A stretch of 64,000 bases of DNA from a virus. Shown one piece after another: positions 3,379 to 41,008 of the stretch. Both the position numbers and the translations under genes were made by a program. The DNA is taken from positions 1 through 64,000 of IMG/VR virus record IMGVR_UViG_3300027836_000011. One strand, 5' to 3'. The notes under the pieces are model-generated. The model had not been told where the DNA came from, made no database searches, and saw nothing but the letters and a program-made list of their open reading frames with translations. Every line of letters starts with the position of its first letter. The stretch's first letter is position 1.

Positions 3379-3409
3379 AATCAACCTGTAGGTTTATTTA
3401 ATGTATGTT

Positions 3410-3454: not shown

Positions 3455-3496
3455 CATTCATTATATGTTTCTACATATAGTATTGGTAATATTGCG

Positions 3497-3519
3497 TATT
3501 GCAATATGCAATTGCATAT
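3497..3519. repeat. Overlapping palindromes next to the end of the cargo operon
   Basis: ATATGCAATTGCATAT (3504-3519) is a perfect 16-base palindrome and overlaps a second palindrome TATTGCAATA (3497-3506). It lies 2 bases beyond the stop of the 1,925-residue gene and past the nrd terminator. It could bind a dimeric protein. No T-run follows, so it is not an ordinary terminator. Confidence 0.5.
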
Positions 3520-3521
3520 AA

Positions 3522-9299: not shown

Positions 9300-9305
9300 A
9301 GTCAA

Positions 9306-15300: not shown

Positions 15301-18300
15301 TGTGCTGCAGAATAAATTAATACTGCACCGGCATTATCTCTTTGTACAAATAAGTAATCTACTCTAAATGTTGTGAATCCTTTTACAACAGATTGAAATA
15401 AAGCAGCATTCTTAATCTTAGTAGGTAATGGACCTGACTCTAATAATGTATCTACAGATATACCAAAGTCTTGTAATAATCTTGTTACAACAGCACCAGT
15501 CTGTGGATTATCTAATCCAAAGAAGTACATATTCTGTAACATCTTTTTAGGATCATCAATATTCTTAACAGCTTTTAATAATCCATTATAAGCAGATGTA
15601 AAGTTAATTGGAACAATTAGTTTTACTCCAGGCTTTAATTCTGTATTACCAAAGTAATCTGTTTCTTCTATAGTTGTTGTAGCCAAATAACTTCTTAGCC
15701 CTTCAGATAAGGAACCAAAACCACCAATCATAGACGCATCCATGTTGTATTGTTCTACATTTCTTAAACCAACTTGCTCTTCAAAATATTCATTATTATA
15801 TTCTTCTTCTTGAGTTTGCTTAGTTATAATGTTTAATACTTTAAATACTTCAGATTTTAATTCATCAGAAAAATTATAAAATACCTCATTGATTTGTGGT
15901 AAAAATTTCTTTTGTTCATCTGAAAGTTTTTGATTTGATTCTGTTTCTTCATCATATAAAGCAGCAAAATCATTCATCACGTTCTCAAGTATGTCCCCAC
16001 GCTTAACATTAGGGTCTCTTACTTTTTGTATTTCTTGAATATACATAGCAGCTATACTTGAAACTAAAGGTTCAGCAATAGCACTATCTAAGAAATAGTA
16101 TCCAATTTTGTTATTAGCATTTTGTTCAGTATCATATGGTAATAATGCATTAGCTTCTAATGATACACCAGTCATTAAACTGTTGACAAATTGATTTGAA
16201 TTTATTGACGCATTTTTAAACTTGCCCGCATCAATGTTTTCATATAACGTAAGTAATTGATTCTTAGTAAAGGACTGGAATACAGACTTAATCCACTCCA
16301 TAATTCTAGTGAATAAAGACTTAACAGAAGAATCTGTTTGAGTTGATTTTGCATTTGTTTTAAATTTTTCAAATTCATCAGCCAGGTATTCTTCATAATA
16401 TTCTTGTTCTAATCTTTCACGGCTCATGTTAGAATAAGTATCTGCTGAATTTCTGAATCTTTCTAATTCAGCTTCAAAGCTTTTTCCTTCTGCTCTTAAC
16501 TTAGCTCTTACTTCTTTTCTTGCAATTGCTAAATATTTTGTAATTTCTGCATCAGTTAATAGCATTCTAAACACACCATGAAATGCTTCATGATATCTAA
16601 ATGGAGATCTAGCTCCAGTAAACAATGTTCCATTAACAGTTAATCCTCCACCAAGATCATTAAGGTTTAATACAAAAGCACCAACGCGTACACCAGCATT
16701 CTTAAGATTATTACCTAATGTTTCAATATCAGCTATAGATATAAAACTAGGAAGATTGTTTCCGGCCCACTCTGTAAATACATCAATGTCTTCAACATCA
16801 GCGGCAGCATCTTCAACAGAAACTATTTTGTTAGCTTCACTTTCTAATTTTTTTCTTTCAGCTAAAAGATCTTGATACTCTTTGCTTTCCTTAACAGCTT
16901 TAATTTTAGCAGCTCCAACTAACCCTTGAGTAAGTTGTGCTTTAAGAATTTCAAGTTGTTGTTTAACACCTTCTAGTTTATTTAATCTAACACCATTTCT
17001 TAAAGCATTAATATCATCTACATTAATGTCTTCAGGATTTATGCTATCAGTATTTATTCTATCTGCTTTTTCTTCTGGAGTTACTACATTAGATACATCC
17101 GCTTTAGTAGAAACTAATACAGGTAACTTAATTATAACAGAACCATCTGCTTGGTTAAACAATAATTGTACACCAGGCATTAAAGATGTTACTTGTTCTT
17201 TAATTTTATTAAATTCATCTTGAGTAATACCTGTTTGTCTTTCATATAAATCTTGAATCTCATCTTCTGTTTTTGCATTTTTAAGTTTCTCTAATGTTGC
17301 TTTATTTAATTCAACATTATTAGTTACTGGATTACCATTAACCGTAAGAACCTCATAATCTCTTTTTAGATTATTTGCATAAACTCTTAGACCATCTAAA
17401 GATATATTTGTTTTCTCTGTATATTCATGACCAGCAGGTAATAGTTTTTGAACCTCAGTCATCATACTTTTAAATGAAGCCTTATCACCTGATTTGTTTT
17501 CCATTTTGGATGTCCACCTATTTGAAGGAGTAATAACAACATTACCATTGACAATAGATTTAGTATAGATTCTGATATAACCCACATAATCATTATCAGA
17601 TTTACCTGTCATTATAACATCAACAAGACCATTTTCAGGATTAGTGTATTCAGCAATACCAACCCCATTAACTTCTTTATAAGAAGATATATTAGAATTT
17701 TTATTACTACCACCAACTACATCAGCAAATTCAGATTGATCAGGAAATAAATCCTTACGTCTATCTTGCATAGGGTCAGCAGCTGTTCTTAATTCAGGTC
17801 CTTTAGGAATTGGATTTCCTTGCGCATCTGTAAACATTTCTGTTGGTGTAAATACACCTTGTGTAACTACAGGAATATTTTTAGCAGCTTGAATAGCTCC
17901 AGAATCAGCAGATAATTGAATTGCACTAACTGATGAAACTTGAGGTGCTACTTCAGTTGTAGTTTTTTCAATTATTTCTTGAACACCCGCTTCTCTAGAA
18001 TATGAAGCTCTAAAGTTTGCAGCTGTAAGATTTACATCAGAAGCAACCACTGCTGGTAATTCATTAAACTGATCTAATAAAAGTTTAAGTTTTTGATCAA
18101 CAGATAAATCTTTATTTAAAATATCAGCTTTGTTTAGTCTAACTATACCTATTTGTTTATTATTTGAATCAGAAATTTCCAATTCAATTTTACCCCATGG
18201 ACTTACTTGTAATGAAAGTCTGAATCCTGGTTTAGCACTAATAAATAATTCACTTCTTAAAGCTTTATTGTAATCAACATTAAATCTTTTATCAAATTTC

Positions 18301-21300
18301 TCAACATTTTTTTCAGGATTTTCAGATAAAGTTAATTGAGCTCTATCCAATAATTCAAGAAACTTAGTATTTAAATCAATTGATTTAGCTTTTAAATTTA
18401 CTAAAGCATAACTACCATCTTGCAATAATACTGCAGCTACATAAGCATCTGTTAAACTTGTAATGCTATCAAGCATTCCTTGTTTAGTTAAACTTTCTTC
18501 AACTCTATCTATAAGCTCTCTTCTTTCTTCACCTTCAAGATTTGATATAGCAACTTTAGTTCTTGAACCTCCTTTGTTATTTTCTAATTGATAAATTAAA
18601 TAATTACCATTTTCATCAGCAGATTTAAATTCTAAATCATTTAATGACTTAGGTGTTTTATCATAAACAGTTATACCTGGTTTAGAAATAAAAGATAAAC
18701 CACTAGGTAATTTTGAAATTGATATAACTCCATCAGGATTATTTGCTATTAACTCAGGTAGTGCAGAACTTAATAAATTATTTAAAGCAAAATTATTTTG
18801 AGCACGCTTTAAATCTTCTTCAGTATTTACACTCATTCCTGCAGGAACATAGATTAAATTTTTATAATCTTCTGCTGTCATAGTAGAAGGATTAATAACA
18901 GTACCTTGAGAATTGGTTATTACAAAATTTGTATTTTGCATAAAACCAAAAACACCATTTGAGGAATTACTTTTATTTAATCCACTTGCTTCAATAGCAG
19001 CATCAATCTTAGCTTGAGTTTCTGGATTAGAAGTTCTTATTCCCACTGAATATTTTGCTCTTACAGTTTGAATGTAAGGGTTTGCTTCTTTAAAACCAGG
19101 AATAATTAAATTACCATTGTTTACTCCACCTTCAGGGTCTAATGTAACAACTAATTCTAGTTGGCTTAGTTCTTCAGGACTTAGCACTGACATAACTAAG
19201 TTATATCTTGCAGTTGCTTGTTCAGGACTTTCTAACCATTGATTAGTTACAACATCTTTGTTTCTATAAGCATATGGTTGAATAGGCTCATTTATATTAA
19301 GTCTGCTGACATTTTGTGGTAAGACTTTAAGATCTAAAGCTTGAACTGTAAAAGATGCTTTAAATTCACCCTGTGCAATTTTAAATGAAGCATTTGTTGT
19401 TTCATCTATTGATGGGCTAATATCATCAGATGCTATTAACATTAATTTACGTTCTGTACCTACTTGTTTAGGTTGACTTAATACAATAAACTCTTTACCT
19501 GATAAATCATAAACTAACTGTCCATAATTTAAAGTTACATCATCAAAAATAAATTGTGTTGAATCCGGTGCAGCATTGTCTAATGTTTTTTGCATAGACA
19601 AAGCTTTTGCTTTATCACCTTCAGCAAATATACCAAAGGTAGGAATACCATATCTAGTTAAAGTTTCCTCATCAATTGGTTGTTTAGATTGATCTACTAA
19701 CTGATATGATATAACAGTATTACCTTCTGAGTCAAGAGTTTTTAATTCAACTAATGAAACTGTGTTTCCTTTTTTAACTGTTGTTATATTTTTGTTTCCT
19801 TCTACAGCTTCTCCTTCATTAGGTAACAATTCTGTTTGACCAGTAACATCATCAATAGTTAAACCCAATGCATTAACAACAGATTCTACCAAGTCATTTG
19901 TTTTACCTTCCTGACTTTGCAACCATGGGATTAATCCAGCTTCAGTTCTGATTTCTTCTTCAGTTAATGGATTATTAGGATTTATTAATTTGTCATTACT
20001 AATCCATATTTTTTTAACTGCAATGAAAGCAGCTCTATGATTTTTACCAGACTCACTATTAACCCACTTATCAAATGTTACAGGTTTTCTTCCTGCAGTA
20101 GTTTCTTTAACTGCATATTTAGCATAAGCTTTTTTCATTGTGTTTTCTAACACAACTGAATCTTTAACTGATACTTCAACATCAATAATTACATTATCCA
20201 ATATATCATCTACTTCATCTCTGCTTTCTTCTGCTGTTTCCTCTTCAGTTTTAACTTCTTCTACTTTTTTATCAGGTCTTGTTTGTTCATAGTCAGATAA
20301 TAATCCCTGAATATCTTCCAATGCTTCTTTGTCAAAAGAAGTTAATTGTTCTCCTTTTTGATTATAAAATGTTTTTAAATATTTACTGTCTCCAGTTTCC
20401 AAAAACATTTTCATTTCAACATTGTTTGGAATATATCCCAACTTTGCAATTTGATTTGCTAATTCATTTCTCTCAATTACATCAGTATAATCACGTACTT
20501 GTTGTTCAAATATTGCCTTTCTGTTTTTGTATTGTTCTTGTAATACTTCAGCAGTTCTTTGAAATACAAGGTCAAACTTTTGAGGATCATTTAAATACTC
20601 AATTGTTTTATCATATACTTTAGCTCTACCCTGTAATGCATTATAATCTATAATTTGTTTTAACGCAGCATCAACAGCTTCTTTATTAACAAATGTACCA
20701 GATTGTTTAGCCATGTATTTTACATAGTTTTCAAACTCTTTTCTAAGTGCACCAATTTTTCTTTTATCAAATGAACCATCTTTAGCTTGATTCTCTTCAT
20801 TCATTAATATGTTTTTGAATGCAGATAGTCTTTCAACTTTTTCTGTCTTTTCTTTTACTCTAGCAGTATTAGTTGGATCACCTGATAATATAATAGCTTC
20901 TTCAGTTAACATTTGTATTTCTTTGTCAATAGAATTTTGATCTAACAATACTGTTAAATCATTAGCTGCCATTTTATCAAACAATGGTTCAGATACTAAA
21001 TTTTGATAAATATTATTTGATCTTTCCAATGCTCTGGTAAATCCATCTTGAGTAAACATATAAAGATATCTTGCATGTTCAAATGCAACTTTCTTTATTG
21101 TTTCTTCTGTCCATTGTCTAGAACCTTTTTCAAAAGACTCTGGCATAAATGGATTTTGATATCTATCTTTTGATTGCTCATATACAGTTTCAGTTCTATC
21201 AATTTGATTAACCAAACTCTGAAGACGCTCTCTAATTTTTCCATTTTTAATATCTTTTTTACTTGAAGGAAAAGCCGCAGCTAAATCTTCATCAGACATT

Positions 21301-26706: not shown

Positions 26707-29217
26707 TTATGCACCCATCTTTCCTGTATAGAATGGTACTATCATTCTTTTTATTTCTTTTCCTGATTTACTCTGAGTCTGTGGATAACCTTGTGGTGCA
26801 CCTCTTCTCTGCATTTCTAATTGAGCATTGCTTATATCAGGAGTTGCTGAAGGACTCATACCCATATATAATTTTAAGAAATCCATATCAACCTTTTGAT
26901 CTGGTCCTAAATTTTTCTTTAGTTCAGCATATGAATCTAATATCATTTTTTGTCTATCAGGTTCTTTTCCAACTTTTTGTAAAGCTTTACCACCTTTAAA
27001 TCCAATAGGCCCACCTGTTGTAGGATCTATAGCATAGTAATCATAAATTGAATTTAGATTATAGGTATTAGCTCTATTAGTAAGAGCAGTATTAAACAGT
27101 TCAGCTTCTTTACCTATCTTCCAATTTTGGAAATTATCAGCAGCTTGCAATGTTTTTTGTGTATCATCATATACTTTAATGTTTCTACCTTGATTAATTG
27201 CATCAGTCTGCATATTCAATTGTGCTTGCATTGGAGCTACCTGATTCATTATACCAACATTATTCATATTAGTTCTATTGATAGCTTGTGCATTTGCATC
27301 TATTGTTTGACCTTGAATATTTGAAGTAGCCACAGCTTGTGGTCCACCAACAGCCCCTAAAGCTTGAGCCATAGTATTTGCAGCTGCTGAATTTGCATTA
27401 GCAGCTCCTCTCCAATCATCTAGTACATAATCTATTTTAGCTGGTCCAGCATCTGGTGCCCATGGTAAATACAAATTATCATCAACTAAACTTAATGCAT
27501 TCAAGTTATTTCTATCTTGTGCCCACCATTCAGGTTGAGGTGCAATATATTCTTCAACTGGAGGAATTTCCAAAGGAGGTCTTGGTTCTGGCGGTACATC
27601 AACAGTAAATGTTGCATCAGCTGGTTCAGCAGGAGTAAGTTTAAAACGTGGAGCATTATAAGTATGCAATCCTAATTTACTATCAAATCCTTGTCCCTTA
27701 ACATAACCTTTAGTTCCTTTTTCTTTCCAATATGGTACATATTCTTTATCATCACCAAATGCGGCAATGTGTTCTTTTCTTCTTGTATCTTCAGCCTTTC
27801 TTTGAAACTGTGCCCATTGAGGATCATCAGGTGCTTTGTCATAATCAAATCCAGGAATAGTTGCCGCAACATCTCCCCATCTAGCTTCAAAATCAGCTCT
27901 TGATTCTGCACTTTTAATATCTTCAGAACCATATGCACCACCTGCAGTATTTTGAAATTCAGGTCTAGTACCTTGTGATAATCTACCAAATTGATAAACA
28001 CCAATTGGACTTTCATTTATTGCTTTTTCTTGACCTGCAATGTCTTCACCATAAATAGATACAGAACCCTGACCTTTTTGATTTTGACCAGCAATTTTTT
28101 CTTTAGCTAATTGTGCTTCTTTTTCTGCTTTAAATTTTGGATCTTCAGCTGCAATCTTTTTAAAGTTATAAGTTTGTTTCCCGTCTACAACAGAACCTTT
28201 CACAACTTCAAATTTACCAGAGTCAATCATTTTTTGAGCTTCTGCATATTTAGGATGATCTTTAGGAAGTGGGTTGACAGGTTTTTCTTTACCATCTTGA
28301 TACATTGCTATTTCTCTACCATATCTTGCCATGCCTTCATTACCCATAGCCATAACATCTTCATCAGCCATAGCCAATTGTTGTTCTTGCATTGAAGGAT
28401 CTTCAAATGATTGTTCTTGTTGTTGAGGTTGTTGTCCATCAACTTGAGCCATCATCTCTTGCAATTGTAATAACTGTTGTTGTTGTTCAGGAGATAATGC
28501 ATTAAACGCTTTCATCTGAGCTTGCTTCTTAGTGATGTTTTCTACTTTAGCAGTAAACTCAATTGGATCTTCTCCAATAGAAACTAAGTATGGATGAGCA
28601 GCTAATGGCACACCATCTTCAAATTTCTTTTTAAGTTCTTGACCAAATGCTAATTTAGATAATCCCATCATATTTTTCTTCAACATCATTTCAGAACTAC
28701 GTGCTGTTATCTCATCTGCAAATTGATCTTTCATTGCACCATAGTACTTATTAAGATCATATTTTTTAGATACTTGTGCAGGAGTCATTCTTGATTTAGT
28801 TTCTATACCATACTCAGCTAATTCTTCTTGATTAAATCTCATTTTATCTGTATCAGAATAAATAAAAGATTGTTCTGGTAAAAACATTGGCACACCACCT
28901 TTAGAGTGTCTTGGTCCATTTATATTATATAAACCAAATTGATTGTCATTGTTTAAATCAGTTAATACAGTTTCACCACCTTCAGCTTCAATGTTTGCTT
29001 TGTCCCTAGGTACACCAGATAAACTGTATCTAACAGATTCATCTCTTGTAGTATTCATGCTAGCATTATTGTAATAGTCTTGAGGTAAAGTAACTAAACC
29101 ATAACCAGCTTGATCACCAGTCACATAGCCACCCTCTCTCATCATTTGATCTTCTTCTATTTTACCATTAACTAATTTGAAGCCTGCAGGTAAACTATTT
29201 ATTTTAATTTTTGCCAT
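26707..29217 (-). CDS. Large virion protein of unknown function (836 aa)
   Basis: The N-terminal 160 residues contain GGETVLTDLNNDNQFG, then NGPRHSKGGVPM and LPEQSFIYSDT, a conserved-looking block I associate with crAss-like and related Bacteroidota phages but cannot assign a function. A Gln-rich low-complexity stretch follows at about 235-290, a Pro-rich linker at about 540-575 (PPEPRPPLEIPPVEEY), and an Ala/Asn/Gln-rich helical region at about 600-690. The C-terminus ends in MIVPFYTGKMGA. It is 2 bases from the 704-residue gene, so they are co-translated. Internal virion protein is the best inference. Confidence 0.6.
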   Translation of the reverse strand: MAKIKINSLPAGFKLVNGKIEEDQMMREGGYVTGDQAGYGLVTLPQDYYNNASMNTTRDESVRYSLSGVPRDKANIEAEGGETVLTDLNNDNQFGLYNINGPRHSKGGVPMFLPEQSFIYSDTDKMRFNQEELAEYGIETKSRMTPAQVSKKYDLNKYYGAMKDQFADEITARSSEMMLKKNMMGLSKLAFGQELKKKFEDGVPLAAHPYLVSIGEDPIEFTAKVENITKKQAQMKAFNALSPEQQQQLLQLQEMMAQVDGQQPQQQEQSFEDPSMQEQQLAMADEDVMAMGNEGMARYGREIAMYQDGKEKPVNPLPKDHPKYAEAQKMIDSGKFEVVKGSVVDGKQTYNFKKIAAEDPKFKAEKEAQLAKEKIAGQNQKGQGSVSIYGEDIAGQEKAINESPIGVYQFGRLSQGTRPEFQNTAGGAYGSEDIKSAESRADFEARWGDVAATIPGFDYDKAPDDPQWAQFQRKAEDTRRKEHIAAFGDDKEYVPYWKEKGTKGYVKGQGFDSKLGLHTYNAPRFKLTPAEPADATFTVDVPPEPRPPLEIPPVEEYIAPQPEWWAQDRNNLNALSLVDDNLYLPWAPDAGPAKIDYVLDDWRGAANANSAAANTMAQALGAVGGPQAVATSNIQGQTIDANAQAINRTNMNNVGIMNQVAPMQAQLNMQTDAINQGRNIKVYDDTQKTLQAADNFQNWKIGKEAELFNTALTNRANTYNLNSIYDYYAIDPTTGGPIGFKGGKALQKVGKEPDRQKMILDSYAELKKNLGPDQKVDMDFLKLYMGMSPSATPDISNAQLEMQRRGAPQGYPQTQSKSGKEIKRMIVPFYTGKMGA

Positions 29218-29219
29218 AG

Positions 29220-31334
29220 TTATAATATTTCAATGTCAGCTCCCGCTGCAATTAATTTTGCTAATAAATTTGAATCAACATTTATGGTATTGTTTTCACC
29301 ACCATATTTGCTCATATATAAACCGGTTGTTCTATCACCTTCACTACCAGCCGTACCAGTATTAACATCCCACATTCCTCTTTTGTTAAAAGGATCTTCA
29401 GCAGTAGCATATTGATAATCTGCGCCTAACTTATTAAAGTTATCTTCTCTTGCTTGATTAATGTTCTTATCTCTAAACCAATCATTAACAACATCTGCAC
29501 CTTTGACTGCAAAGTTAGACAATTTTGCATAACCTTGTACACCAGGACTATCCATAAATCTATTTAAGTTACCTTCAGCTTTATTTGTTATGTCAACAGT
29601 TGGCTGTTGAAATGCAGGTGCAGCGGGAACAGCCGGTTGTACTGGAGTACTAAATGTAGTTACATCTGGTTGTTTAGTATATCCTGCTGTATCAGCATAA
29701 TTAGCAGTCTGTCCAAATCTTGGATCATTCATACCAAAAGGATCATTGAAATTAAAATTTGGAGGAAGTCCAAATTGAGCTTTATCTAAGTCACCACCGT
29801 ATTTAAATCCTTGTTTAAGATAAGCGTCATATTCAGATTTAAGTTGTTCTTCATTTTTACCTTGATTTCTTACTGCATCTCCTGTAGCATACCAATCTTT
29901 AAATGATTTTTGTGGAGTATCAGTAACTTTATTATCCATCATTGATGACATTACCGGTGGAGTTTTAAACATACCAGGTAAAGGTTGACCTGTATTTCCT
30001 GTAGGTATCATTGCATTTTGATTAACACCTAATTTATTATTACCCATATAAGTATCATATTCATAAGGATTATCAGCACCAGGTCTATAAGATGAAGCTT
30101 GACCATATCTATCAATACCAAGTCTGGTTCCCGTAGGATCATCCTTAGTATCCATTATCATAGCCTTAGTATCTTTATCCATATTACTTAAGTAATTATA
30201 ATCTTGACCAGCTATTGCATTTTTTTGAGCATCTGAATTATAAACTCTTTCATCTATTGGTCTACTGCTAGTAATAAAATTATAATCATTTGAAGCAGTA
30301 TCATAATTAAATCTAGAGTTTGCCGCTACATCTTTACCATATTGATCAACAGTTCTTAAGTTACCTTTACCTTTTGCAGTATTGTATAGATCTGTATTAT
30401 CAGCCATGTATTTATTTGGGTCATTTACATCTTGAGTTATTTTGTAATTATAATAATCACCTTTAGTTGCATCTCTTATTCCTGCTTTCTTAGAACCATC
30501 TCTAAAGAAACCATCTTTAACACCATCTTTATCAGCATCATCACCACTTAAAAATTCTTTATAACCACCATAAGCTACAGCAGCTGCTTTACCCAAACTA
30601 AAATTATCATTGGTATATTCAAATTCCATTGGATTAATATACAAAGGAGCTCTTTGCCAATTGGTTTGTTTTTTTACATAAGCATTATTGACTGCCCCTA
30701 CTTTACCTTGAGGAGTGCCACCCATATCATATTTCTCACCACCATCTTCTTTTTTCCAACCAGCAGCATTTTTAGCAAAGTTTGCCATCTTAACTACAGA
30801 TGTAGGATATTCATCAGTATTAGCCATAACCTTACTTGCAGCTTCTTGTACAGACATACCCCGTGCTTCAGCCCATCTAGTAAACTTACCTTCATTCTCA
30901 GGTTTAATTTCTATACCTGATTTACCCATAGACATTCCTGGTTCTTGAGTTTCTTCTTCTGACATATCATCAGAATGCATACTCTCATCTTCAGTTAATT
31001 GTTGTGAGGTTTGATCTAATTGATCAACAGGCATTGGTTCACCACCAACTTGTTCTTCTGGTTGTTGACCTTCACTCATTTGTTCAAACAATGACATAAT
31101 ATCATTTTCCTCAAAACCATTCATCATTAGAGCTTGACCAATAGTCTGTTGATCAACTTGTTGTTCAATCAAAGACATAACTACTTCTGCAGCATTTTGT
31201 CCTTGACCTATTGCTTGAGAAATAAAATCTGAAATTTGTTGTACAGCAGGATCTACTGCTTGTTGTGGTTGTGCCTCAACTTGTTCAGTAGTTTGTCCTC
31301 CTTCTTGCTTTAAACTTATTTTGTTTACTTTCAC
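29220..31334 (-). CDS. Virion protein with GMSVQ-type module (704 aa), GTG start
   Basis: Residues about 30-90 form a Gln-rich helical bundle (IGQGQNAAEVVMSLIEQQ), followed by an acidic Gln/Glu linker. Residues 141-194 carry a compact module (GKFTRWAEARGMSVQEAA then VVKMANFAKNAAGW) that I recall from many large phages and some giant viruses, with no known function. The remainder is Asn/Asp/Gly/Tyr-rich and lacks motifs. The only start that keeps the N-terminus is GTG at 31334; an in-frame TAA lies five codons upstream and no ATG lies between, so this gene appears to use a non-ATG start. It is followed after 2 bases by the 836-residue gene. Probably an internal virion component. Confidence 0.6.
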   Translation of the reverse strand: MKVNKISLKQEGGQTTEQVEAQPQQAVDPAVQQISDFISQAIGQGQNAAEVVMSLIEQQVDQQTIGQALMMNGFEENDIMSLFEQMSEGQQPEEQVGGEPMPVDQLDQTSQQLTEDESMHSDDMSEEETQEPGMSMGKSGIEIKPENEGKFTRWAEARGMSVQEAASKVMANTDEYPTSVVKMANFAKNAAGWKKEDGGEKYDMGGTPQGKVGAVNNAYVKKQTNWQRAPLYINPMEFEYTNDNFSLGKAAAVAYGGYKEFLSGDDADKDGVKDGFFRDGSKKAGIRDATKGDYYNYKITQDVNDPNKYMADNTDLYNTAKGKGNLRTVDQYGKDVAANSRFNYDTASNDYNFITSSRPIDERVYNSDAQKNAIAGQDYNYLSNMDKDTKAMIMDTKDDPTGTRLGIDRYGQASSYRPGADNPYEYDTYMGNNKLGVNQNAMIPTGNTGQPLPGMFKTPPVMSSMMDNKVTDTPQKSFKDWYATGDAVRNQGKNEEQLKSEYDAYLKQGFKYGGDLDKAQFGLPPNFNFNDPFGMNDPRFGQTANYADTAGYTKQPDVTTFSTPVQPAVPAAPAFQQPTVDITNKAEGNLNRFMDSPGVQGYAKLSNFAVKGADVVNDWFRDKNINQAREDNFNKLGADYQYATAEDPFNKRGMWDVNTGTAGSEGDRTTGLYMSKYGGENNTINVDSNLLAKLIAAGADIEIL

Positions 31335-31394: not shown

Positions 31395-34300
31395 TTAAGA
31401 ATTGCCTACAATATAAGTCATTATATAATTTGCAGTAGTCATTCCTAACTCTTTTGCTTTACTATAGTAAATTCTATTTAATTTATCATAGTTTTTTATT
31501 GCTAGTTCTTCATTACCAATATTACCTTTTATGTAATCTTTATACATAGTAATATTAGTAGAATTTAATTGCCCACCAAATTGTTTTTTATTTAAAGATT
31601 CAAGTATACGTGGATCTAAATTAGCCTTTGGTATTGAATCAGCAACTCTTGTTCTTGATCTTGCATCTACCAATTCTCTTGAAAAATTATAATCTGGTGA
31701 TTTAGCTTGATAATATCTTGGGCCATTTGGTGTATCAACTTTTTTTGTAGTTACAACCACTTTACCATTTTGTTCTGAATATTTATTTTCACCACCTTGT
31801 TGTTTCATATACTCAACAGATCCTCCCATTTTCTTTTCTGCTGGTAGTCTATTGTATGCTTGCATTAATGGTCCCGGTTTTGATTCACCACCATCTCTAA
31901 AACCATATAATGTTTTTATTGGTTTATTTTTTTGATTACCTAATGCTTTAGAAAAATCAGTGTTAAAGGTAGTGTTTTTTTGTAATAAAATATCATTTAT
32001 ATAATCTCTTGGTTCTTTGGGTAATTTACTTATCCAATCTAAATTATTATAAATGTCAACACCTTCTTCTTTTAAATCATTCAATAAGTTCATAACATTA
32101 CCACGGCCCCAATTATAAGAAGCTAATGTTTTAGCTAATCTTACATCTTCTGATTGACCGGGTTTATTAATAAAACTTGAATTATATAATTCATTCATTG
32201 AATATTTTTGGACATCTGCATTTTGTTTCATATTAAAAGGATCAACATTACCTTTAATATTGTTTGCCTTTTTATAATCTTTAATCACAGCATCTCCAAT
32301 TTGACCCAAACCTTTATATCCTGCAGGTGAAACTGCTTTAGGATTAAATGCAGATTCTCTATATGCTTGTCTTACTAAAAGCTCTGGAGTTATTCCTTTA
32401 GGTTTAGCAGATGTTTTTGCTGGTTCAGCTTTTAATTCAGTAGAATACCTTTCCCCTTTCCATAAGAAATCAGAATCACCCTCATTGCGCGCTGCCCTAA
32501 AAGCTTCTTTAAATGTAGATTTATCATCATATCTAGAAGTACCCCAATTTGCTGGATTTAAATATGCAGTCCAAGAAGTATCTTCTTTCTCACCACCATC
32601 TTGCCTTCTAGTTAATTTATTTGTATACTTGTTTATATGAGCGCGTGAAGTATTTTCCCAAGCTTCAGGATTTACTTTAATTGATTTTAAAGTTTCTAAA
32701 ACTTTTTCACCTTCTTGTCCTTTAATTGCATAATGTGAAAAAGGATCTAATTCACCAAAAAGATTTTTACCAAAAGCTTTCCATACATCAGAATCACCAT
32801 AAACACCTTTTGCTATATCTTTTAAAGGTAAAACATCATAATACTTTTGTGTTAAATCTTTTTTATTTTCTAAATACTTTAACTGCATTTTATCAAAAAA
32901 GTTAGGAGCATCCCTTACAAAAGGATCATCACTTATTATATTATTTCTGTAGTTTGCATCAGTTCTATATTTTAAATCACTAATTAAATTATTATGTTTT
33001 CTCCAAGAGTCCTCTGCTAACTGATTATATAAAGCTTCTTTTTCTTTTACTGCAACTTGTAATTCTGTCATTTTATTAGGATCTCCTGTAATAGCAAGAG
33101 TTTCTCTAACATTTGTTGGAAATCTTTTTATGTAATCATTTTTAACAATACCTTCTCCAAAAGGTGAACCTTTAAAACCAAAACTTGGATCAAAGTCATT
33201 AGTTGTCAACCAGTCTTGTCTATTTCCTGATGAAAAATCTGTTGGTCTTTTTGCTTTAACAATATATCCATTTCCATATGTATATCCTTCTGCAGTTGGA
33301 ACTGAGTTTGATAAATATAATGCATTCTCACCTTCCTTTAAACCAAACCTACCATAACCCGTATTCATAGGTATATGTGTTGACATATATTCTGCTGCTG
33401 CTTTAGAACCTTCTTCCGTTGTAAGATTAAACCCTTGACCTTCAAGATACTTTATTATTTCTGGATTTTTTTGACCAAGAATATCCCAATTAGTACTTAC
33501 ACCTCTAACAAAAGTATTGTGTCTATCAGCTAATCCTCTTATAGTTCTATTGGTAAGTTCATCAGATTGTGCGATTCTTTCTAAATTTTCTGGTAATTTA
33601 TATCCATATTTTTTTGCCCAATCTTTTGCATAAGTTAAATCATTTAAATTATTTGATACAATACCAGTTTTATTTACAGAAGAACCAAAAGATGGTCCTG
33701 CTGTTTTTAAGCCTTGTCTTAACTCAGGAGCTATACTTGTATTAATATTTTTTAATGAGCTGTAACCTTCCCCAATAGTTTTTGTAGCAGGACCAAGTAC
33801 AGGTAGACTTTCAGCTACGTCCATTGCTACATTAAAAGCATTTTCCCAAGATGGATTTTTATACATTTCTGCAGTATCAGGTCCAATATGAGTTAAACCA
33901 TGTCCTGCAAATCCTGCAGTAATAGCATTACCAACAGTAGCTCCAGGAACAGTTGCCATACCAGGTAGTTGAGTAGCTAATGCAGTTGAAACATATGGCG
34001 CAGCTGCGGTACCTACTGCTGTTAAACCAGCAGCAGCAATTGGAGCAAGAGCAATTGCACCGGGTGCATAGAATAAAGGATTCTTTACAGCATCTTGCAT
34101 GTTATTATAAACCACTCTTTTTCTACGCTTTGTGTTCTCTGCATTAAGCATATCCTGTTGCCATTCAGGTAACTTTTCAATTTGTGCTTGTTGAGATTCA
34201 CTTGTAAATCCTTCAGGTGCTCTTAAATCATGATACTGTTTAGTTGCCATGAACTGATCTTCTTTACTCAATCCCTTTACAGGTTTCTTTAAAGGAAATG

Positions 34301-34898
34301 TAGCATTTGTTTTAGGATCAAAACCAAACTTACCAGTATCAATTTGTTTATTGATCCACTCATCTGATCTTTGGTTACCTGTAAAAGAAATATAGTTTCC
34401 ACCTTTAGTTGTAGATGTTACCCATCCTTCAGGAGTTAATGTATTACCTAACCATTTTGTTTCTTTCCCTTTCTGAGCTTTCATTAAACCTTTACCACCA
34501 CACTTATGACAATCCATAACATCAGATCCACCATCAGCAGCTTTCCATTTCCAACCGCAGTTACCACACTCAATAGTTTTATCTAATAGAGCACCTCCCA
34601 TTTTGGCTATTAATGTTTCTGTTACTTCTGTACCTGGAAATTCATAATCATATCCTGGATACATTACTTGCTCATTACCTAAGTTATCTACACCGTGGAT
34701 TGGTCCCTTTCTCAAAGGGCTACCATCTTTTTCTTTCATAGTAATAGAACCAGATGGAATAATGTTTTGATAATTATTTACATCTGGGCTATCCATTCTA
34801 AATCCTTCTGTAGAGAATACTCCTGTAGTATAACTAAACATTTCATTTGGGCCACCCGGTAATCCTCTACGTTCTGTATGTTGTATCTTTTTCTCCAT
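31395..34898 (-). CDS. Multidomain virion protein: zinc ribbon, ADP-ribosyltransferase-like region, lytic transglycosylase
   Basis: A 1,167-residue protein of several parts. Residues 111-133 form a zinc ribbon (C111-x2-C114, C130-x2-C133). Residues about 278-345 are Ala/Gly/Pro-rich and hydrophobic. Residues about 460-590 resemble an ADP-ribosyltransferase fold: R465 in FVRGVSTN, S530 in LYLSNSVPTAEGY, then GNGYIVKAKRP, with E582 a candidate catalytic Glu; this assignment is tentative. Residues about 840-980 are an SLT-type lytic transglycosylase: catalytic E848 in YRESAFNP, then AGYKGLGQIG and SYNWGRGN. The transglycosylase should cut peptidoglycan during DNA entry. The start ATG overlaps the stop of the 2,036-residue tail gene (TAATG), so translation is coupled. 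It is the first of the cargo-type genes. Confidence 0.78.
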   Translation of the reverse strand: MEKKIQHTERRGLPGGPNEMFSYTTGVFSTEGFRMDSPDVNNYQNIIPSGSITMKEKDGSPLRKGPIHGVDNLGNEQVMYPGYDYEFPGTEVTETLIAKMGGALLDKTIECGNCGWKWKAADGGSDVMDCHKCGGKGLMKAQKGKETKWLGNTLTPEGWVTSTTKGGNYISFTGNQRSDEWINKQIDTGKFGFDPKTNATFPLKKPVKGLSKEDQFMATKQYHDLRAPEGFTSESQQAQIEKLPEWQQDMLNAENTKRRKRVVYNNMQDAVKNPLFYAPGAIALAPIAAAGLTAVGTAAAPYVSTALATQLPGMATVPGATVGNAITAGFAGHGLTHIGPDTAEMYKNPSWENAFNVAMDVAESLPVLGPATKTIGEGYSSLKNINTSIAPELRQGLKTAGPSFGSSVNKTGIVSNNLNDLTYAKDWAKKYGYKLPENLERIAQSDELTNRTIRGLADRHNTFVRGVSTNWDILGQKNPEIIKYLEGQGFNLTTEEGSKAAAEYMSTHIPMNTGYGRFGLKEGENALYLSNSVPTAEGYTYGNGYIVKAKRPTDFSSGNRQDWLTTNDFDPSFGFKGSPFGEGIVKNDYIKRFPTNVRETLAITGDPNKMTELQVAVKEKEALYNQLAEDSWRKHNNLISDLKYRTDANYRNNIISDDPFVRDAPNFFDKMQLKYLENKKDLTQKYYDVLPLKDIAKGVYGDSDVWKAFGKNLFGELDPFSHYAIKGQEGEKVLETLKSIKVNPEAWENTSRAHINKYTNKLTRRQDGGEKEDTSWTAYLNPANWGTSRYDDKSTFKEAFRAARNEGDSDFLWKGERYSTELKAEPAKTSAKPKGITPELLVRQAYRESAFNPKAVSPAGYKGLGQIGDAVIKDYKKANNIKGNVDPFNMKQNADVQKYSMNELYNSSFINKPGQSEDVRLAKTLASYNWGRGNVMNLLNDLKEEGVDIYNNLDWISKLPKEPRDYINDILLQKNTTFNTDFSKALGNQKNKPIKTLYGFRDGGESKPGPLMQAYNRLPAEKKMGGSVEYMKQQGGENKYSEQNGKVVVTTKKVDTPNGPRYYQAKSPDYNFSRELVDARSRTRVADSIPKANLDPRILESLNKKQFGGQLNSTNITMYKDYIKGNIGNEELAIKNYDKLNRIYYSKAKELGMTTANYIMTYIVGNS

Positions 34899-37800
34899 TA
34901 TCTCATTGATAAAAGTAATTTAGTGTTATTCAATCTCAATAACATCTTTCTATTTTCTGATTTAACTCTTCTTAAAATAACATTGTTATAATAATGTCTA
35001 AACTTTTTATGTTGTAACGGAGCCTTATTATAATTTAAATTTGTAGTATTTAAAACTTTAATGTATCCATTAGGTTGAGTATCCCATATTGATTGTTCAA
35101 CGTTTGTAAATTCACCTCTATCATTAGTGATATCATAAAACTGATTGAACCTATACTTCTGTTCAACTTTAGAACATAATATGTTTATGTTATTCAAATT
35201 GACTATTGGATAACTTAACTCTAAGATAGGATTGTTATATGGTGTTGGAGTCAATTGTAATAACCCAGACACTTGCTCATTATTATAAATAATAGATTGG
35301 TCAAAGTTAAAGTTTAAATCTTCCCATCTATCATCATTACAAGCATAACCCATATCACCTTTGTATACATAAGTCTCTAATTGATATTCCATACTTCTAA
35401 CAGTATTAACCATCTGTCCAGTATTAGAAACTAATTCTACTTCCCAAGGATAATCAACACCATAGAAATTAGCAAAACTATCACATCTAACATTATGTCT
35501 CCAAAATGAACCAACTTTGTAATTAGCTGGTGTAGACTCATATTTATAAAAATTACAAATTTGAGGATTTGGATTTACATATGTTGGATCTCCTAGTAAA
35601 TAAACATCATCACAATTTCCTGTTGTTGTTGTAACACTTCCTGGAGGAGATGTTGGACATGCGCAACTTACTTTTCTACATACAGGTGGAGTAATGTTAT
35701 TACATGTACCTGTTGGTGATGTATAAAGACTTGTTGCTGTATTAAAAAATACTTTTGTATAACCTGGAGCACAAGTACAAACAAATGGAACTGAACAAAC
35801 AGATCCTGCAATAGCTGTTGCTACAGCAGCAAATGTTGCAGGCACAGCCGCATTAATTCCAAATTGGAATCCATCAACATTTACAGGACCTGGCGTACAA
35901 GATATATTACCTAATACATTACCACTTGGTATAGCAGTATTTGCACCACAAAATAATGCATATACTCTTTGGTTTGTTGGACCACTTGCACTTGGTGAAA
36001 CACCAGTACCTTGAAATGGACAACCTATATTTCCCGGATCACTTGTTGTATCTGTAACTAATATTATTATTTGTCTAAAAAATGGTTGTGTACTTCTATT
36101 ACCTAATTGACTAGCTGCTTTATTATTTAACAATGTTTGACCAGAAGTCATTCCTAAAGAAACATTTGTACCACCACCAATCCAGTTACCATTATACCAT
36201 GCAGCAGCTTGAGCTGGAGTAACAGTATTACTCATAGACCAAGTACCCCCTGCAGGATTTGGTATATTATAATTTATATTATTACCACTCCATGAAGTAA
36301 AACCTATCTGCATTGTACCTGCAGCCATTGGTGTTGTTATATTAGAATCACTTAAAAATGCATTTAACCATGCTAATTGTGCTTGTCTGCGTCCTCCTGA
36401 ATTAGTTGATCCAGATGTATCCATTGCAATAACAATATCTATTAAACAATTAACTGGTCCACCATTAACAACAGAGTTAATTTGATCTACTGTAACAAAA
36501 GCAGGTTCATTAATATTAATAGATCTTTCACATAATCCATTAGTAGAATTAAAATTATATCCCGGAGGGCATTGCGGTATAGTAGTAGCCATAGTCTTAG
36601 TAGTAAAGAAATGGTTAATACTTGGCAATGCAAATTCCGGATGCCAGTCATGGAATGATATCCAAGCTTTAGCTTTAGGATCATAACTTACAGTCCAAGA
36701 ACAATCATCAAAATACACTGGATCACCTAATGTAATAGGGCTCTCTAATAATGCAAAGCCTCTTTTTTCACTATATGTTACATTTGCAATATACTGAGCT
36801 TTTACTCTGTAATCTTTTTTCATAAAGTAAACTACATCATCATTAGGATCATAGATTGTTTGACAACCAACACCAACTACAGGATTATCTGATAATGGTG
36901 AATCTTCTAATTGAGGAAACTGTTTAACAAGTTGAGATGGTAAATATTTATTAAACCACCATTTCATTCCTGCATTAGATATTGGATCTAGTGTTTGACC
37001 AGTAAAATGAAATATTTTCCCTTGAGCTTGAGATATAAAAAATAAACCTACAGGTGTATTCATAACACTTCTCAAACTTTCACATGAACCATATTCATTT
37101 GATATGTCTGAGTTAACAATATTTTGAAATGGTTGACTAAACAATCCTCCATCACCAATAGTAAGTTTAGTATCTAGTTGTGTTTGCAAAGTATCTAAAC
37201 CTTGAAACATCTGAGGAGATAAATAAGGAAAGAATATAATAGCACCGCTTTTATTAATTGGTTTTATAACACTCACTTCATTTATAAAATCCTTATAGTT
37301 TAATGGTAAGAATACTCTCCAAAAATCTTTTTTAGATTCTTCTTGAGCTTGTAATGAATAGATTAATCTTTTTGGATAACTGACATAACAATTTTCTGCA
37401 ACATACGGATCATAGTATCTTGGTTGTATTTCACCAAAACTACTCAACTGAGTTACAAACTTAGATGGACTTAATGATTCATCATATTTATAAAAGTTAT
37501 CTTTCTTTTCTATTTGAGCATGGAACAATTCATCAATATCATTATAACCATATACATCATATATTCTTGCATCAGCTCTATCTTCCCAATCTCTATTAGC
37601 TAAGTTAACTTCAGACTCAACAAAGAAATCTAATATACCATTAACATGCGTATACATATAAGCATATCTCATGGCAAATTTAGGATTAGGATCACCACTA
37701 GCACCAAAGATTGCACTTAAACCAGTAGCACAACTATTTGATCCTCTATCTAAATAAAACAAATCACTAGGAAAAACAGCATCTAATTGACTAGAACTTG

Positions 37801-40800
37801 TAAGACTTAAACTAGCAATTTCCCCAGCCAAAGTACTCATATCAAATTTTTGAGAATTTAACCAAAATCTTGGATAAGGTATATTGACATGCTGAGAATA
37901 ATCATATGTAAATTCATCTGGTTGACCTAATAAGTATTGTGCAAATATAGGCATGATAACTTTTTCAGTATATCTAGTAATAAATATATCACCATTAAAT
38001 ATAGCTGAACTAGAATACTTAAATGCCATTGGTTTAGTTGGATCTAAATATTCTACGCAACCTCTCATTTGAATTTGCTTAATACCATCTAATTGACCAT
38101 ACTGATTATCAAAATTAAACTTAAGTGCACCATAGTAAGCAGATATAGTTCTTTTTTGTTTTGTTGATGGATTAGTTAAATAATCATCACTATAAACATT
38201 AACTGTACCATTAGCATTTACATCACCCCCTATGGTAAATCTAGACACATCAATTACAGTAGGTTCTGTTATAGGTTTATCTAATGAAACAGCTACGGTA
38301 GATGGTCTAAATAAATTATTAATTTTATAACTTCCATTATCAAATGATTGAAATGATTGACCTAAGTAATTTGAATCTGTATTCTTGATTCTAAATAACC
38401 CTGTATTAATTTTAGTAAATGAATTAAAAAATCCATAAGAATTATATTTAAATGCAAAATCAGATTTATTAATTAAGTTATAAATCAATTCTAATATTTC
38501 ATTTCCACCAATTGCTATATTAGTTCTAGACATTGTAAAAGAAACAAAAGCTCTTACAATTAAAGGTAAAGATGATTCTGATGAATCATTTGATTGTGCA
38601 TTATTTATTGTACCACCTAACATACCAGGTGCATTACCAGCATTGGTTTGAATAACAGCATTTGCCATATCTAATGCATATGTTGCAGCACCACCAACAT
38701 AAAGATCTGCTAAACCTGCAGCATTATTTAATAATGTATTTAAAGCTATTTGACCAACAGTACCTACATTTGCAGCAGCAGCAACAGCAACTGAATAAGC
38801 TGCTTGTGCTACACCCGGTGAATTTAAATAACCTGAAGATTTTCCAAGCCATGCACCAGTTGCACTTGCAGAAGTCATATTTGCTTTAGCACCATCTACA
38901 GTTTTAGTTCTTGTACCTAACATTTTATGTATAGCATATCCCACACCAATAATAGAAGCTATAATAGCTGCACCATTTCTTAGTAATTTAAATTGAGGAT
39001 GATCTTCAGATGCTTTAAAATAACCACTTGAATTACCACTTACTTGTCCATAAAGTCTTGTCTCATAAGCATTTAAAAAAGGTTTAGTAAACATTAAATC
39101 TGGTGAAGAAAACGTAAATACATTTCTAGAATAACCTGAAGGTTCACCTGCTATTGCAGGAGCAGAACCTAAAGGTCTATAACTACCAATTGATATACTA
39201 TAATTATCACAACCTTCAGTTCTATGAATAGAGTTTGCATTACCATCATGAAAGTAAACATCAGGTCTTAAATCATTGTATGGATAGTTTGGATATAAAC
39301 CTTGAACAGAACCACCAATTAAATTTTCAGCATTAGGAATAGTATACTTACGCATATTTCTAAACAATCCTTTTGCTAAAATAGATTTGGCACCAGCTCT
39401 AGTTCCTCTTAATATTTCATAACCAACTATATTTGTTATATATGTTCCATCATTATTTTTTGGTCTACCAATATTAGTAAATTCAACACCAAGAATATTA
39501 ATTAAATCTCCTTGTGTTGTACTTATATGCAAAGGTGAATTTGCACCCCCTACTTCTTCAGTAGGAAACTTATGGTGTCTAATTGGTTTACCACAAAGGT
39601 CTCCCCAAATATCAGGTCTATTAGCAGGATATCTTTCTGTTGATTCCCAATATCCCATTTTACCTCTAGCAATAACTAATGATCCATCTGCTTGCACTTC
39701 AGTTAAATTCTGAGCTGTAATGTTTCCTGTATTATAAACCTTAAATAAAGGATCTCCTGCAACATCTAATACATTATCACCATAGATAACATCATTTTCT
39801 AAATAAGTCCCTGAAGGGGTTGTAAATGGCTCAGGAGCTCTTCCTGGTATATGATATGAAGAAGATCTTTCTCCTGTGTTATAAATCCATCTAATAAAAA
39901 AAGCATATTGCTCATCTCTCATGAAACCCATTTTATTACCACCTAAATGATAATAAGTAGAATCTATTTGATTTGCTACCCAGTTAACTTTAATATCATT
40001 TGCTATTGGTTGATAATTAAAATCAAATTGACTAACAGGTCCTTGTCTAATTAACCAATCATTTACAACATACATTGCATTTGATTTTTCATAAGCAGGA
40101 CTTCTTTGAGGTATAGTTTTTAAACTTATAGCTACTAGAGCATCATCAATATAGTCAATGTTTATATCTTCCTGTTGCGTACTATAAAGACCTATGCGTT
40201 TTGCATATACTTGACCTTGATTTCTTACAAGTAAAACCAATTCATAATAATCAAAATCTTTATCTAAATTAGTAACTTTAACATTTAATGATCCTCCTGT
40301 ACCGGCATGTGACCATAATGTTTGAATGTTAGATACACCAATATAATCAGTAACCTTTTGCTCATTTTCAGTATATGCAATAAATGCTTGATAAGCACCA
40401 TTTTGTAACATACCACCATCTATTGATTTACTTAAATCAACACAAGGAGTATCAAGTAAAGGAGCTAATCTTATCTTTTCACAATTTAATTGTGTTGTAT
40501 CAGCATATGTAATACATGGATCACCAACTGCAGATGTTACAGTTTGAATCCACGGTACCTTATCAATGTTTAATGAACGGGATGGATTGTTTCCATCATC
40601 CCAATATGTTTGCCATGTACAATCAAAATTTTCTTTTGCTGCACCAGTTATTAAATACTTTCTATTAAAGTTTAAGCAAGGATCATTTACAATAACTTCA
40701 TACTTACATTGGCTATCATCAAATCTTCCAATTTCTGAATTTACATCATCTGTAGAAAATACAACCCATTGATCACCATATCTATGTATAGCTCCAATAA

Positions 40801-41008
40801 TTGTATAAGGAATTACACCACATTGTAAATTAGATGGTTCATTACCAATTACACCTAGATCTCCATCAGTAGAATTATTTGCAGCATTACGCGCATGCCA
40901 CCAACTTTCTTTTGGTTCCATTGACTGCGTAATATCTTTATTCATTCCTTTTATGAATGAATTAGTATTTACAGAAGATGTTCCTGGATTTTCATTTTGC
41001 TGTGCCAT
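34898..41008 (-). CDS. Giant tail protein (muzzle/stabilisation type) with inserted vWA domain (2,036 aa)
   Basis: The N-terminus (SFIKGMNKDITQ, PKESWWHARNAANNS) matches the start of crAss-like and P22-like tail stabilisation or muzzle proteins, which close the tail tip. A hydrophobic helix lies at about 677-697 (AAIIASIIGVGYAI), followed by an Ala-rich stretch. A complete von Willebrand A domain is inserted at about 1520-1700, with MIDAS residues D1530-x-S-x-S (DTSGS), T1614 (GGGTN) and D1653 (LVTDTTSD); it should bind a divalent metal and possibly a surface ligand. A short Cys-rich segment follows (CTCAPGY, CRKVSCACPTSP). The C-terminal 250 residues return to tail-protein-like sequence. It is encoded after the two ring-type genes and overlaps the transglycosylase gene by one base. 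Confidence 0.72.
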   Translation of the reverse strand: MAQQNENPGTSSVNTNSFIKGMNKDITQSMEPKESWWHARNAANNSTDGDLGVIGNEPSNLQCGVIPYTIIGAIHRYGDQWVVFSTDDVNSEIGRFDDSQCKYEVIVNDPCLNFNRKYLITGAAKENFDCTWQTYWDDGNNPSRSLNIDKVPWIQTVTSAVGDPCITYADTTQLNCEKIRLAPLLDTPCVDLSKSIDGGMLQNGAYQAFIAYTENEQKVTDYIGVSNIQTLWSHAGTGGSLNVKVTNLDKDFDYYELVLLVRNQGQVYAKRIGLYSTQQEDINIDYIDDALVAISLKTIPQRSPAYEKSNAMYVVNDWLIRQGPVSQFDFNYQPIANDIKVNWVANQIDSTYYHLGGNKMGFMRDEQYAFFIRWIYNTGERSSSYHIPGRAPEPFTTPSGTYLENDVIYGDNVLDVAGDPLFKVYNTGNITAQNLTEVQADGSLVIARGKMGYWESTERYPANRPDIWGDLCGKPIRHHKFPTEEVGGANSPLHISTTQGDLINILGVEFTNIGRPKNNDGTYITNIVGYEILRGTRAGAKSILAKGLFRNMRKYTIPNAENLIGGSVQGLYPNYPYNDLRPDVYFHDGNANSIHRTEGCDNYSISIGSYRPLGSAPAIAGEPSGYSRNVFTFSSPDLMFTKPFLNAYETRLYGQVSGNSSGYFKASEDHPQFKLLRNGAAIIASIIGVGYAIHKMLGTRTKTVDGAKANMTSASATGAWLGKSSGYLNSPGVAQAAYSVAVAAAANVGTVGQIALNTLLNNAAGLADLYVGGAATYALDMANAVIQTNAGNAPGMLGGTINNAQSNDSSESSLPLIVRAFVSFTMSRTNIAIGGNEILELIYNLINKSDFAFKYNSYGFFNSFTKINTGLFRIKNTDSNYLGQSFQSFDNGSYKINNLFRPSTVAVSLDKPITEPTVIDVSRFTIGGDVNANGTVNVYSDDYLTNPSTKQKRTISAYYGALKFNFDNQYGQLDGIKQIQMRGCVEYLDPTKPMAFKYSSSAIFNGDIFITRYTEKVIMPIFAQYLLGQPDEFTYDYSQHVNIPYPRFWLNSQKFDMSTLAGEIASLSLTSSSQLDAVFPSDLFYLDRGSNSCATGLSAIFGASGDPNPKFAMRYAYMYTHVNGILDFFVESEVNLANRDWEDRADARIYDVYGYNDIDELFHAQIEKKDNFYKYDESLSPSKFVTQLSSFGEIQPRYYDPYVAENCYVSYPKRLIYSLQAQEESKKDFWRVFLPLNYKDFINEVSVIKPINKSGAIIFFPYLSPQMFQGLDTLQTQLDTKLTIGDGGLFSQPFQNIVNSDISNEYGSCESLRSVMNTPVGLFFISQAQGKIFHFTGQTLDPISNAGMKWWFNKYLPSQLVKQFPQLEDSPLSDNPVVGVGCQTIYDPNDDVVYFMKKDYRVKAQYIANVTYSEKRGFALLESPITLGDPVYFDDCSWTVSYDPKAKAWISFHDWHPEFALPSINHFFTTKTMATTIPQCPPGYNFNSTNGLCERSININEPAFVTVDQINSVVNGGPVNCLIDIVIAMDTSGSTNSGGRRQAQLAWLNAFLSDSNITTPMAAGTMQIGFTSWSGNNINYNIPNPAGGTWSMSNTVTPAQAAAWYNGNWIGGGTNVSLGMTSGQTLLNNKAASQLGNRSTQPFFRQIIILVTDTTSDPGNIGCPFQGTGVSPSASGPTNQRVYALFCGANTAIPSGNVLGNISCTPGPVNVDGFQFGINAAVPATFAAVATAIAGSVCSVPFVCTCAPGYTKVFFNTATSLYTSPTGTCNNITPPVCRKVSCACPTSPPGSVTTTTGNCDDVYLLGDPTYVNPNPQICNFYKYESTPANYKVGSFWRHNVRCDSFANFYGVDYPWEVELVSNTGQMVNTVRSMEYQLETYVYKGDMGYACNDDRWEDLNFNFDQSIIYNNEQVSGLLQLTPTPYNNPILELSYPIVNLNNINILCSKVEQKYRFNQFYDITNDRGEFTNVEQSIWDTQPNGYIKVLNTTNLNYNKAPLQHKKFRHYYNNVILRRVKSENRKMLLRLNNTKLLLSMR

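What the first reader, a model, noticed from the sequence alone, without database searches (positions are those of the whole stretch)
31395..34898. Possible injected ADP-ribosyltransferase fused to a zinc ribbon and a lytic transglycosylase
The middle of the 1,167-residue protein (about 460-590) has the order expected of an ADP-ribosyltransferase: R465 in FVRGVSTN, a Ser motif (S530) in LYLSNSVPTAEGY followed by a GYIVKAKRP strand, and a candidate Glu (E582). In the same chain are a four-Cys zinc ribbon (111-133) and an SLT transglycosylase (E848). T4 phage injects the ADP-ribosyltransferase Alt to modify host RNA polymerase. A crAss-like phage that brings its own virion RNA polymerase and also a modifying enzyme would be a new take-over scheme. 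The transglycosylase and ribbon are firm; the ADP-ribosyltransferase call is not.
Basis: partly seen in the sequence, partly recalled or inferred. Interest (0 to 1): 0.72.

Follow-up and report, generated by a model that had tools for sequence, protein, structure and literature searches.

The report
Swappable ART-like cassette in crass-like cargo protein
A crass-like phage encodes a modular protein, probably packed in the particle and sent into the bacterium, in which a cell-wall-cutting end is kept while the middle is exchanged between relatives; here the middle is a divergent domain that probably belongs to the ADP-ribosyltransferase superfamily, but with an unusual, unproven active site.

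Summary
The 1,167-aa ORF is real: SLT transglycosylase (E 5.6e-12), conserved four-Cys ribbon. The ADP-ribosyltransferase (ART) idea is partly supported. R465, Y528 and S530 are invariant in 13 homologues, including human crAssphage; E582 is not conserved. The domain continues past a variable helical insert into a second half (714-769) with invariant H722, where an ART would have its Glu strand; E731 is in 9 of 13. A low-confidence model (pLDDT 57) gives ART-like strand order; fold searches were uninformative. The strand-2 motif matches the ART-PolyVal profile beyond all 60 shuffles (P 0.004).

Context is stronger. The gene is the first after the muzzle gene, in the virion-cargo block. Relatives keep both ends and swap the middle: nothing, LysM-YkuD, other wall-active modules, and in one a Pfam ART-PolyVal (E 2.5e-12). 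A gut crassvirus carries ART-PolyVal (E 7e-21) on its RNA-polymerase subunit. Human crAssphages carry the same ART-like domain as an exchangeable insert in a cargo-type protein.

Best reading: a Crassvirales 'polyvalent' ejection protein with a divergent, possibly non-canonical ART cassette. ART plus virion RNA polymerase is already known (Roseovarius podovirus), so the scheme is not new; the family and its cassette exchange are.

The parts
31395..34898 (-). modular 1,167-aa protein (P0001), first gene after the muzzle gene
   Evidence: ORF; own-genome match, no internal stops; relatives in the same slot are 408 (cut by the contig end) to 2,184 aa
34455..34898 (-). residues 1-148: conserved N-terminal module (NIIPSGSITMK...DNLGNEQ...FPG), kept in the close slot orthologues
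   Evidence: 84-92% identity in 7 relatives; blastp segments end near 144-148
34500..34568 (-). residues 111-133: four-Cys ribbon CGNC..CHKC
   Evidence: Cys positions; conserved in relatives; similar ribbons occur in other architectures
33696..34454 (-). residues 149-401: first part of the exchangeable middle, with a hydrophobic stretch at about 275-300
   Evidence: shared with L002 at 62% (residues 137-408) and absent from the other close relatives; hydropathy
33183..33671 (-). residues 410-572: ART-like first half; R465 (strand 1), Y528/S530/S532 (strand 2), GYIVKAK (strand 3)
   Evidence: invariant columns in 12-13 sequences; strand order in model; strand-2 match to ART-PolyVal; dN/dS about 0.20-0.24
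32760..33182 (-). residues 573-713: poorly conserved helical insert
   Evidence: long helices in model; low conservation
32592..32759 (-). residues 714-769: ART-like second half, HYAIKGQEGEKVLE; H722, G727, G730, R752, H754 invariant, E731 in 9 of 13
   Evidence: alignment A10; hmmsearch of the crAssphage homologue
32079..32417 (-). residues 828-940: SLT transglycosylase domain, E848
   Evidence: PF01464 E 5.6e-12; catalytic motif conserved
31398..31592 (-). residues 1103-1167: conserved C-terminal anchor module
   Evidence: 82-89% identity in relatives
34898..41008 (-). upstream neighbour: crassvirus muzzle protein
   Evidence: PF25731 crAss_MUZ E 4.3e-30
29220..31334 (-). cargo-block neighbour (704 aa), shares a module with crAss001 cargo protein gp45
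   Evidence: profile comparison, prob 94.5, E 7.6e-8, gp45 profile 315-391
26707..29217 (-). cargo-block neighbour (836 aa), weak match to the portal-bound region of gp45
   Evidence: profile comparison E 1.6e-4 over 38 columns, gp45 profile 441-478
9306..23429 (-). virion RNA polymerase-like protein (4,707 aa)
   Evidence: blastp to crAss001 gp50, E 1.2e-12
3522..9305 (-). RNA polymerase-associated protein (1,927 aa)
   Evidence: blastp to crAss001 gp49, E 6e-28; PF12705 PDDEXK_1 E 1.5e-6

Best explanation
The ORF encodes a modular virion cargo (ejection) protein of a crass-like phage. Shown: its two ends are conserved in relatives (N-terminal module with a four-Cys ribbon; C-terminal SLT transglycosylase plus anchor) and the middle is an exchangeable cassette. 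Inferred: the protein is packed in the particle, leaves it before or with the DNA, the transglycosylase opens the cell wall, and the middle cassette acts inside the host. In this phage the cassette is a divergent domain of probable ADP-ribosyltransferase-superfamily origin, with Arg on strand 1, a Y-x-S-N-S motif on strand 2, and a His (plus a non-invariant Glu) where ARTs carry Glu or Asp. The most likely activity is NAD+-dependent modification of a host macromolecule early in infection, alongside the injected RNA polymerase; whether the cassette is catalytic is open.
For: Slot and cargo block: muzzle upstream; gp45-like modules in the next two genes; polymerase genes downstream. In crAss001 the genes after the muzzle encode cargo proteins found in virions by mass spectrometry (PMC10172136). 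Cassette exchange: same ends, different middles. Real ARTs in the system: PF18760 in slot orthologue L037 (E 2.5e-12) and at the end of the cr85_1 RNA polymerase subunit (E 7.3e-21). The same domain in crAssphage C0531/C0526 replaces another insert between flanks 93-95% identical to the C. communis reference. ART-like features: invariant R465, Y528, S530; strand order; strand-2 match to ART-PolyVal, score 23.6 versus at most 17.6 in 60 shuffles; purifying selection on the first half.
Against: No significant sequence or profile match to any ART family. Models too poor to confirm the fold; Foldseek found no ART. The expected catalytic Glu is not invariant: E582 is not conserved, and E731 is Thr, Gln, Gln or Lys in 4 of 13. 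The hhalign link covers only 16 columns. dN/dS of the short second half is near 1 in one pair (58 codons). One crAssphage strain (ZA) has lost the first half in frame, so the domain is dispensable. Virion presence of this protein was not observed.
Confidence: 0.57

Rival explanations
1. The cassette has the ART fold but is catalytically dead or does different chemistry (NAD+ or nucleotide binding, or a Tpt1-like transfer), because the Glu is replaced by an invariant His; it would act as a binding module on host or virion targets.
For: Invariant H722, R517, R752, H754 and non-invariant E731.
Against: Strong conservation of R465 and Y-x-S-N-S and purifying selection on the first half fit an active pocket; bona fide ARTs occupy the same slot.
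Confidence: 0.22
2. The domain is unrelated to ARTs: a crass-specific structural, docking or peptidoglycan-related module that merely shows ART-like motifs.
For: No significant ART hit in Pfam, NCBIfam, PDB sequences or fold searches. Other cassettes in the slot are wall-active (LysM, YkuD, PG_binding).
Against: Co-occurrence of R-G, Y-x-S-x-S and a later conserved strand in ART order; in-register match to ART-PolyVal beyond all 60 shuffles.
Confidence: 0.21
3. The whole protein acts in the periplasm or at lysis rather than as an injected effector: the transglycosylase only cuts a channel and the middle cassettes are adaptors to the wall of particular hosts.
For: Many alternative cassettes are peptidoglycan-related.
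Against: ART-PolyVal domains need cytosolic NAD+; one sits on an RNA polymerase subunit protein, a class of cargo that works in the cytoplasm.
Confidence: 0.12

Closest known systems
Polyvalent proteins with Tox-ART-HYD2 / ART-PolyVal (PF18760), Iyer et al. 2017, PMC5512222
   Same: Phage-encoded, multi-domain, predicted injected; ART, peptidase and transglycosylase domains swapped in one chain; an ART fused to a virion RNA polymerase in Roseovarius Plymouth podovirus 1.
   Different: This domain is not matched by PF18760, has Arg rather than His on strand 1, carries a long helical insert, and is tied to a crassvirus-specific slot with fixed ends. The paper's main text does not mention crAss phages.
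Phage T4 Alt (ADPrib_exo_Tox, PF03496)
   Same: Virion-packaged ART idea; R-S order (R465, S530).
   Different: No detectable homology; no invariant Glu in the expected place; different architecture.
crAss001 cargo protein C1 (gp45), PMC10172136
   Same: Same genomic neighbourhood after the muzzle; gp45 modules occur in the two genes that follow; the ART-like domain itself is inserted in a cargo-type protein of Carjivirus.
   Different: P0001 itself has no detectable homology to gp45; no ART or SLT domain is known in gp45.
Internal virion proteins with endolysin domain (PHROG 342, T7 gp16 type)
   Same: SLT domain matched (E 2.4e-9); ejection-protein logic.
   Different: Only the transglycosylase is shared.

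Membership tests
ADP-ribosyltransferase superfamily (R-S-E clade) | Arg on strand 1 | tested here: met
   R465 invariant in all homologues
ADP-ribosyltransferase superfamily (R-S-E clade) | Ser (S-x-S) on strand 2 | tested here: met
   Y528-x-S530-N-S532 invariant
ADP-ribosyltransferase superfamily (R-S-E clade) | catalytic Glu on strand 5 | tested here: not met
   E582 not conserved; E731 in 9 of 13 sequences; invariant H722 instead
ADP-ribosyltransferase superfamily | ART fold | tested here: inconclusive
   Models at pLDDT 57 and 51; strand order compatible, fold searches uninformative
ADP-ribosyltransferase superfamily | significant profile match to a known ART family | tested here: inconclusive
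   No Pfam hit; hhalign strand-2 match to ART-PolyVal P 0.004, above all 60 shuffles
ADP-ribosyltransferase superfamily | NAD+-dependent transfer activity | not testable with these tools
   needs a biochemical assay
ART-PolyVal PF18760 (H-Y-D type) | His on strand 1 and score over Pfam cut-off | tested here: not met
   Arg at that place; own genome has no PF18760 match
Polyvalent proteins | several domains of disparate activity in one phage polypeptide with exchange between relatives | tested here: met
Polyvalent proteins | packaged and injected with the DNA | not testable with these tools
   inferred from the cargo block and the crAss001 precedent
SLT lytic transglycosylase (PF01464) | domain match and catalytic Glu in ES.FNP | tested here: met
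   E 5.6e-12; E848 motif conserved

The most novel reading that the evidence does not exclude
Crassvirales, human crAssphage included, carry a new ART-superfamily clade with an Arg / Tyr-Ser / His site, delivered as an exchangeable cassette of virion cargo proteins whose module joints are marked by a double-glycine linker; crassviruses would thus inject a swappable set of host-modifying enzymes together with their own RNA polymerase.
Probability: 0.3. Interest if true: 0.75.

Novelty: new variant of a known kind. Interest (0 to 1): 0.52.

Why it matters
Crassviruses dominate many human gut viromes, yet little is known of what their cargo does to the host beyond early transcription. The evidence points to a slot whose enzymes change between close relatives, including bona fide ARTs, and to an ART-like insert that is present in some human crAssphage strains and replaced or partly deleted in others. 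That gives a direct route to testing strain-specific host take-over. The concept of injected ARTs and polyvalent proteins is known; its occurrence in crassvirus cargo was not found in the held papers searched.

Tried and rejected
E582 as the catalytic Glu: rejected, not conserved. Foldseek and VIA searches with the 371-aa model: matches follow the helical insert (polymerase beta flap, SMC and PI3K coils), treated as meaningless at pLDDT 57; no ART was listed, which excludes nothing. First half alone: model worse (pLDDT 51), not searched. Two genome-contig scans found no bacterial relative, so a bacterial toxin origin was not shown. hhalign to T4 Alt: nothing. Cassette L036 297-476 as a bridge: shares the motif M-x-T-x-IP-x-x-TG with the core (score 25.8, shuffles at most 22.4) and has YRGV and GEEGD, but too few relatives exist. 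Direct homology of P0001 to gp45: none by blastp. Homology of the crAssphage ART-bearing protein to gp45 rests mainly on an exchanged insert, so it is called 'cargo-type' and not C1 proper. PDB sequence hits are chance.

Full report
What is there. The ORF at 31395-34898 (-) is intact and encodes 1,167 aa. It carries an SLT transglycosylase domain (PF01464, 828-940, E 5.6e-12; PHROG matches to endolysin and internal virion proteins), and four conserved cysteines (111, 114, 130, 133). No library names residues 400-770.

Where it sits. The upstream gene is a crassvirus muzzle protein (PF25731, E 4.3e-30). Downstream come two genes that share modules with crAss001 cargo protein gp45, then polymerase-like genes related to crAss001 gp49 and gp50. 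In crAss001 the genes after the muzzle (gp44) include the cargo proteins gp45, gp46, gp47, gp49 and gp50, detected in virions by mass spectrometry (PMC10172136). The finding therefore lies in the cargo block. Its own presence in the virion is inferred.

The protein is modular. Relatives in the same slot keep residues 1-148 and the C-terminal transglycosylase and anchor at about 80-90% identity, but the middle differs completely. L003 and L007 have almost none; L001 has LysM and YkuD; L037, a more distant slot orthologue, has Pfam ART-PolyVal at E 2.5e-12; others have PG_binding or lysozyme-like modules or HExxH-type sequences (read by eye). The ART-like domain itself occurs in 13 distinct proteins with different neighbours.

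The ART-like domain. Alignments of 8 to 13 sequences show invariant R465, R517, Y528, S530, N531 and S532 in a first half, and H722, G727, G730, R752 and H754 in a second half, separated by a variable helical insert. H460 is conserved except for Asp in L054. Both halves are found in a crAssphage protein at only about 28-32% identity. E731, in a G-x-x-G-E context, is conserved in 9 of 13. AlphaFold2 on the full domain gives pLDDT 57, with strands at TFVRGVS, NALYLS, GYIVKAK, then YAIKG and a last strand, which is the ART order but is not proof. The first half alone does not fold in prediction (pLDDT 51). Fold searches were uninformative. Profile comparison with six phage ART-PolyVal sequences aligns NALYLSNSVPTAEGYT with SGIYTTPSKTTAESYT, score 23.6, P 0.0042, while 60 column shuffles reach 17.6 at most. 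This is suggestive, not significant by database standards. The first half is under purifying selection (dN/dS 0.20-0.24; no amino-acid change between two crAssphages), the insert less so.

ARTs in crassvirus cargo are real. Besides L037, the gut crassvirus cr85_1 (Kahnovirus oralis) ends its annotated RNA-polymerase subunit, in the position of crAss001 gp47, with ART-PolyVal at E 7.3e-21. In human crAssphage C0531BW4 and C0526BW15 the divergent ART-like domain lies in a 1,304-aa protein in the cargo block. Residues 245-855 replace a 164-residue insert of the Carjivirus communis reference, with flanks 93-95% identical. That shorter insert overlaps the gp45-like stretch (gp45 222-342). In strain ZA an in-frame deletion leaves only the second half.

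Interpretation. The best reading is a polyvalent-type ejection protein: the transglycosylase helps passage through the wall, and the exchangeable cassette acts in the cell. Kinship to ARTs is likely (about 0.6); catalytic ADP-ribosylation is perhaps 0.35-0.4, because the Glu is not invariant and a His takes its place. The polyvalent-protein paper already describes an ART together with a virion RNA polymerase and gives T4 Alt as the prototype of injected ARTs (PMC5512222); a survey calls ARTs the most common modifying enzymes of polyvalent proteins (PMC9503650). Neither main text mentions crAss phages, and two literature searches found no paper on an ART in crass-like phages.

Punctuation of the modules. 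Among 26 slot and ART-bearing proteins, 71 of 176 module boundaries lie within 10 residues of a [KRQ]x(0-2)GG or AQxG motif; random placement gives 19.9 on average and 33 at most in 500 trials, while four control motifs are flat. Boundaries are not independent because the proteins are related. The glycine codons are ordinary, so the motif looks like a protein-level feature such as a linker or processing site rather than a DNA joint.

Noticed in passing
P0001 residues 101, 141, 768, 1003, 1025, 1035, 1108 (window 31395-34898) and slot relatives: Cassette joints coincide with [KRQ]x(0-2)GG or AQxG linkers: 71 of 176 boundaries versus 19.9 expected, at most 33 in 500 random trials; possible protease-processing or linker punctuation.
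   Followed up: partly
L073 (MT774390.1), CDS 84-7640, residues 2329-2459: Gut crassvirus cr85_1: the annotated RNA-polymerase subunit ends with a bona fide ART-PolyVal domain (E 7.3e-21).
   Followed up: partly
L009, L060, L061, L062, L063: Human crAssphage strains differ by a cassette exchange or in-frame deletion inside one cargo-type protein; the ART-like insert is present in some strains only.
   Followed up: yes
window 35858-36439 (-), muzzle residues about 1524-1717: The muzzle gene carries an extra stretch with a MIDAS-like DTSGSTN motif (weak von Willebrand A match, E 0.073), absent from close relatives L003 and L028 but present in L015.
   Followed up: partly
window 3522-9305 (-), residues 473-566: The RNA polymerase-associated 1,927-aa protein contains a PD-(D/E)XK nuclease domain (E 1.5e-6, over cut-off).
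   Followed up: no
L002, L004, L015, L035, L038, L054 slot or ART-bearing proteins: A recurrent unidentified cassette with YR.IG..GY.DAI.SG ... DWL.GYK motifs, without a Pfam name, often next to the ART-like or wall-active modules (read by eye).
   Followed up: no
L036 (slot protein residues 297-476): A compact cassette with YRGV, MGTQIPGSTG and a GEEGD strand that may be an ART-like relative without the helical insert; only one close relative was found.
   Followed up: partly
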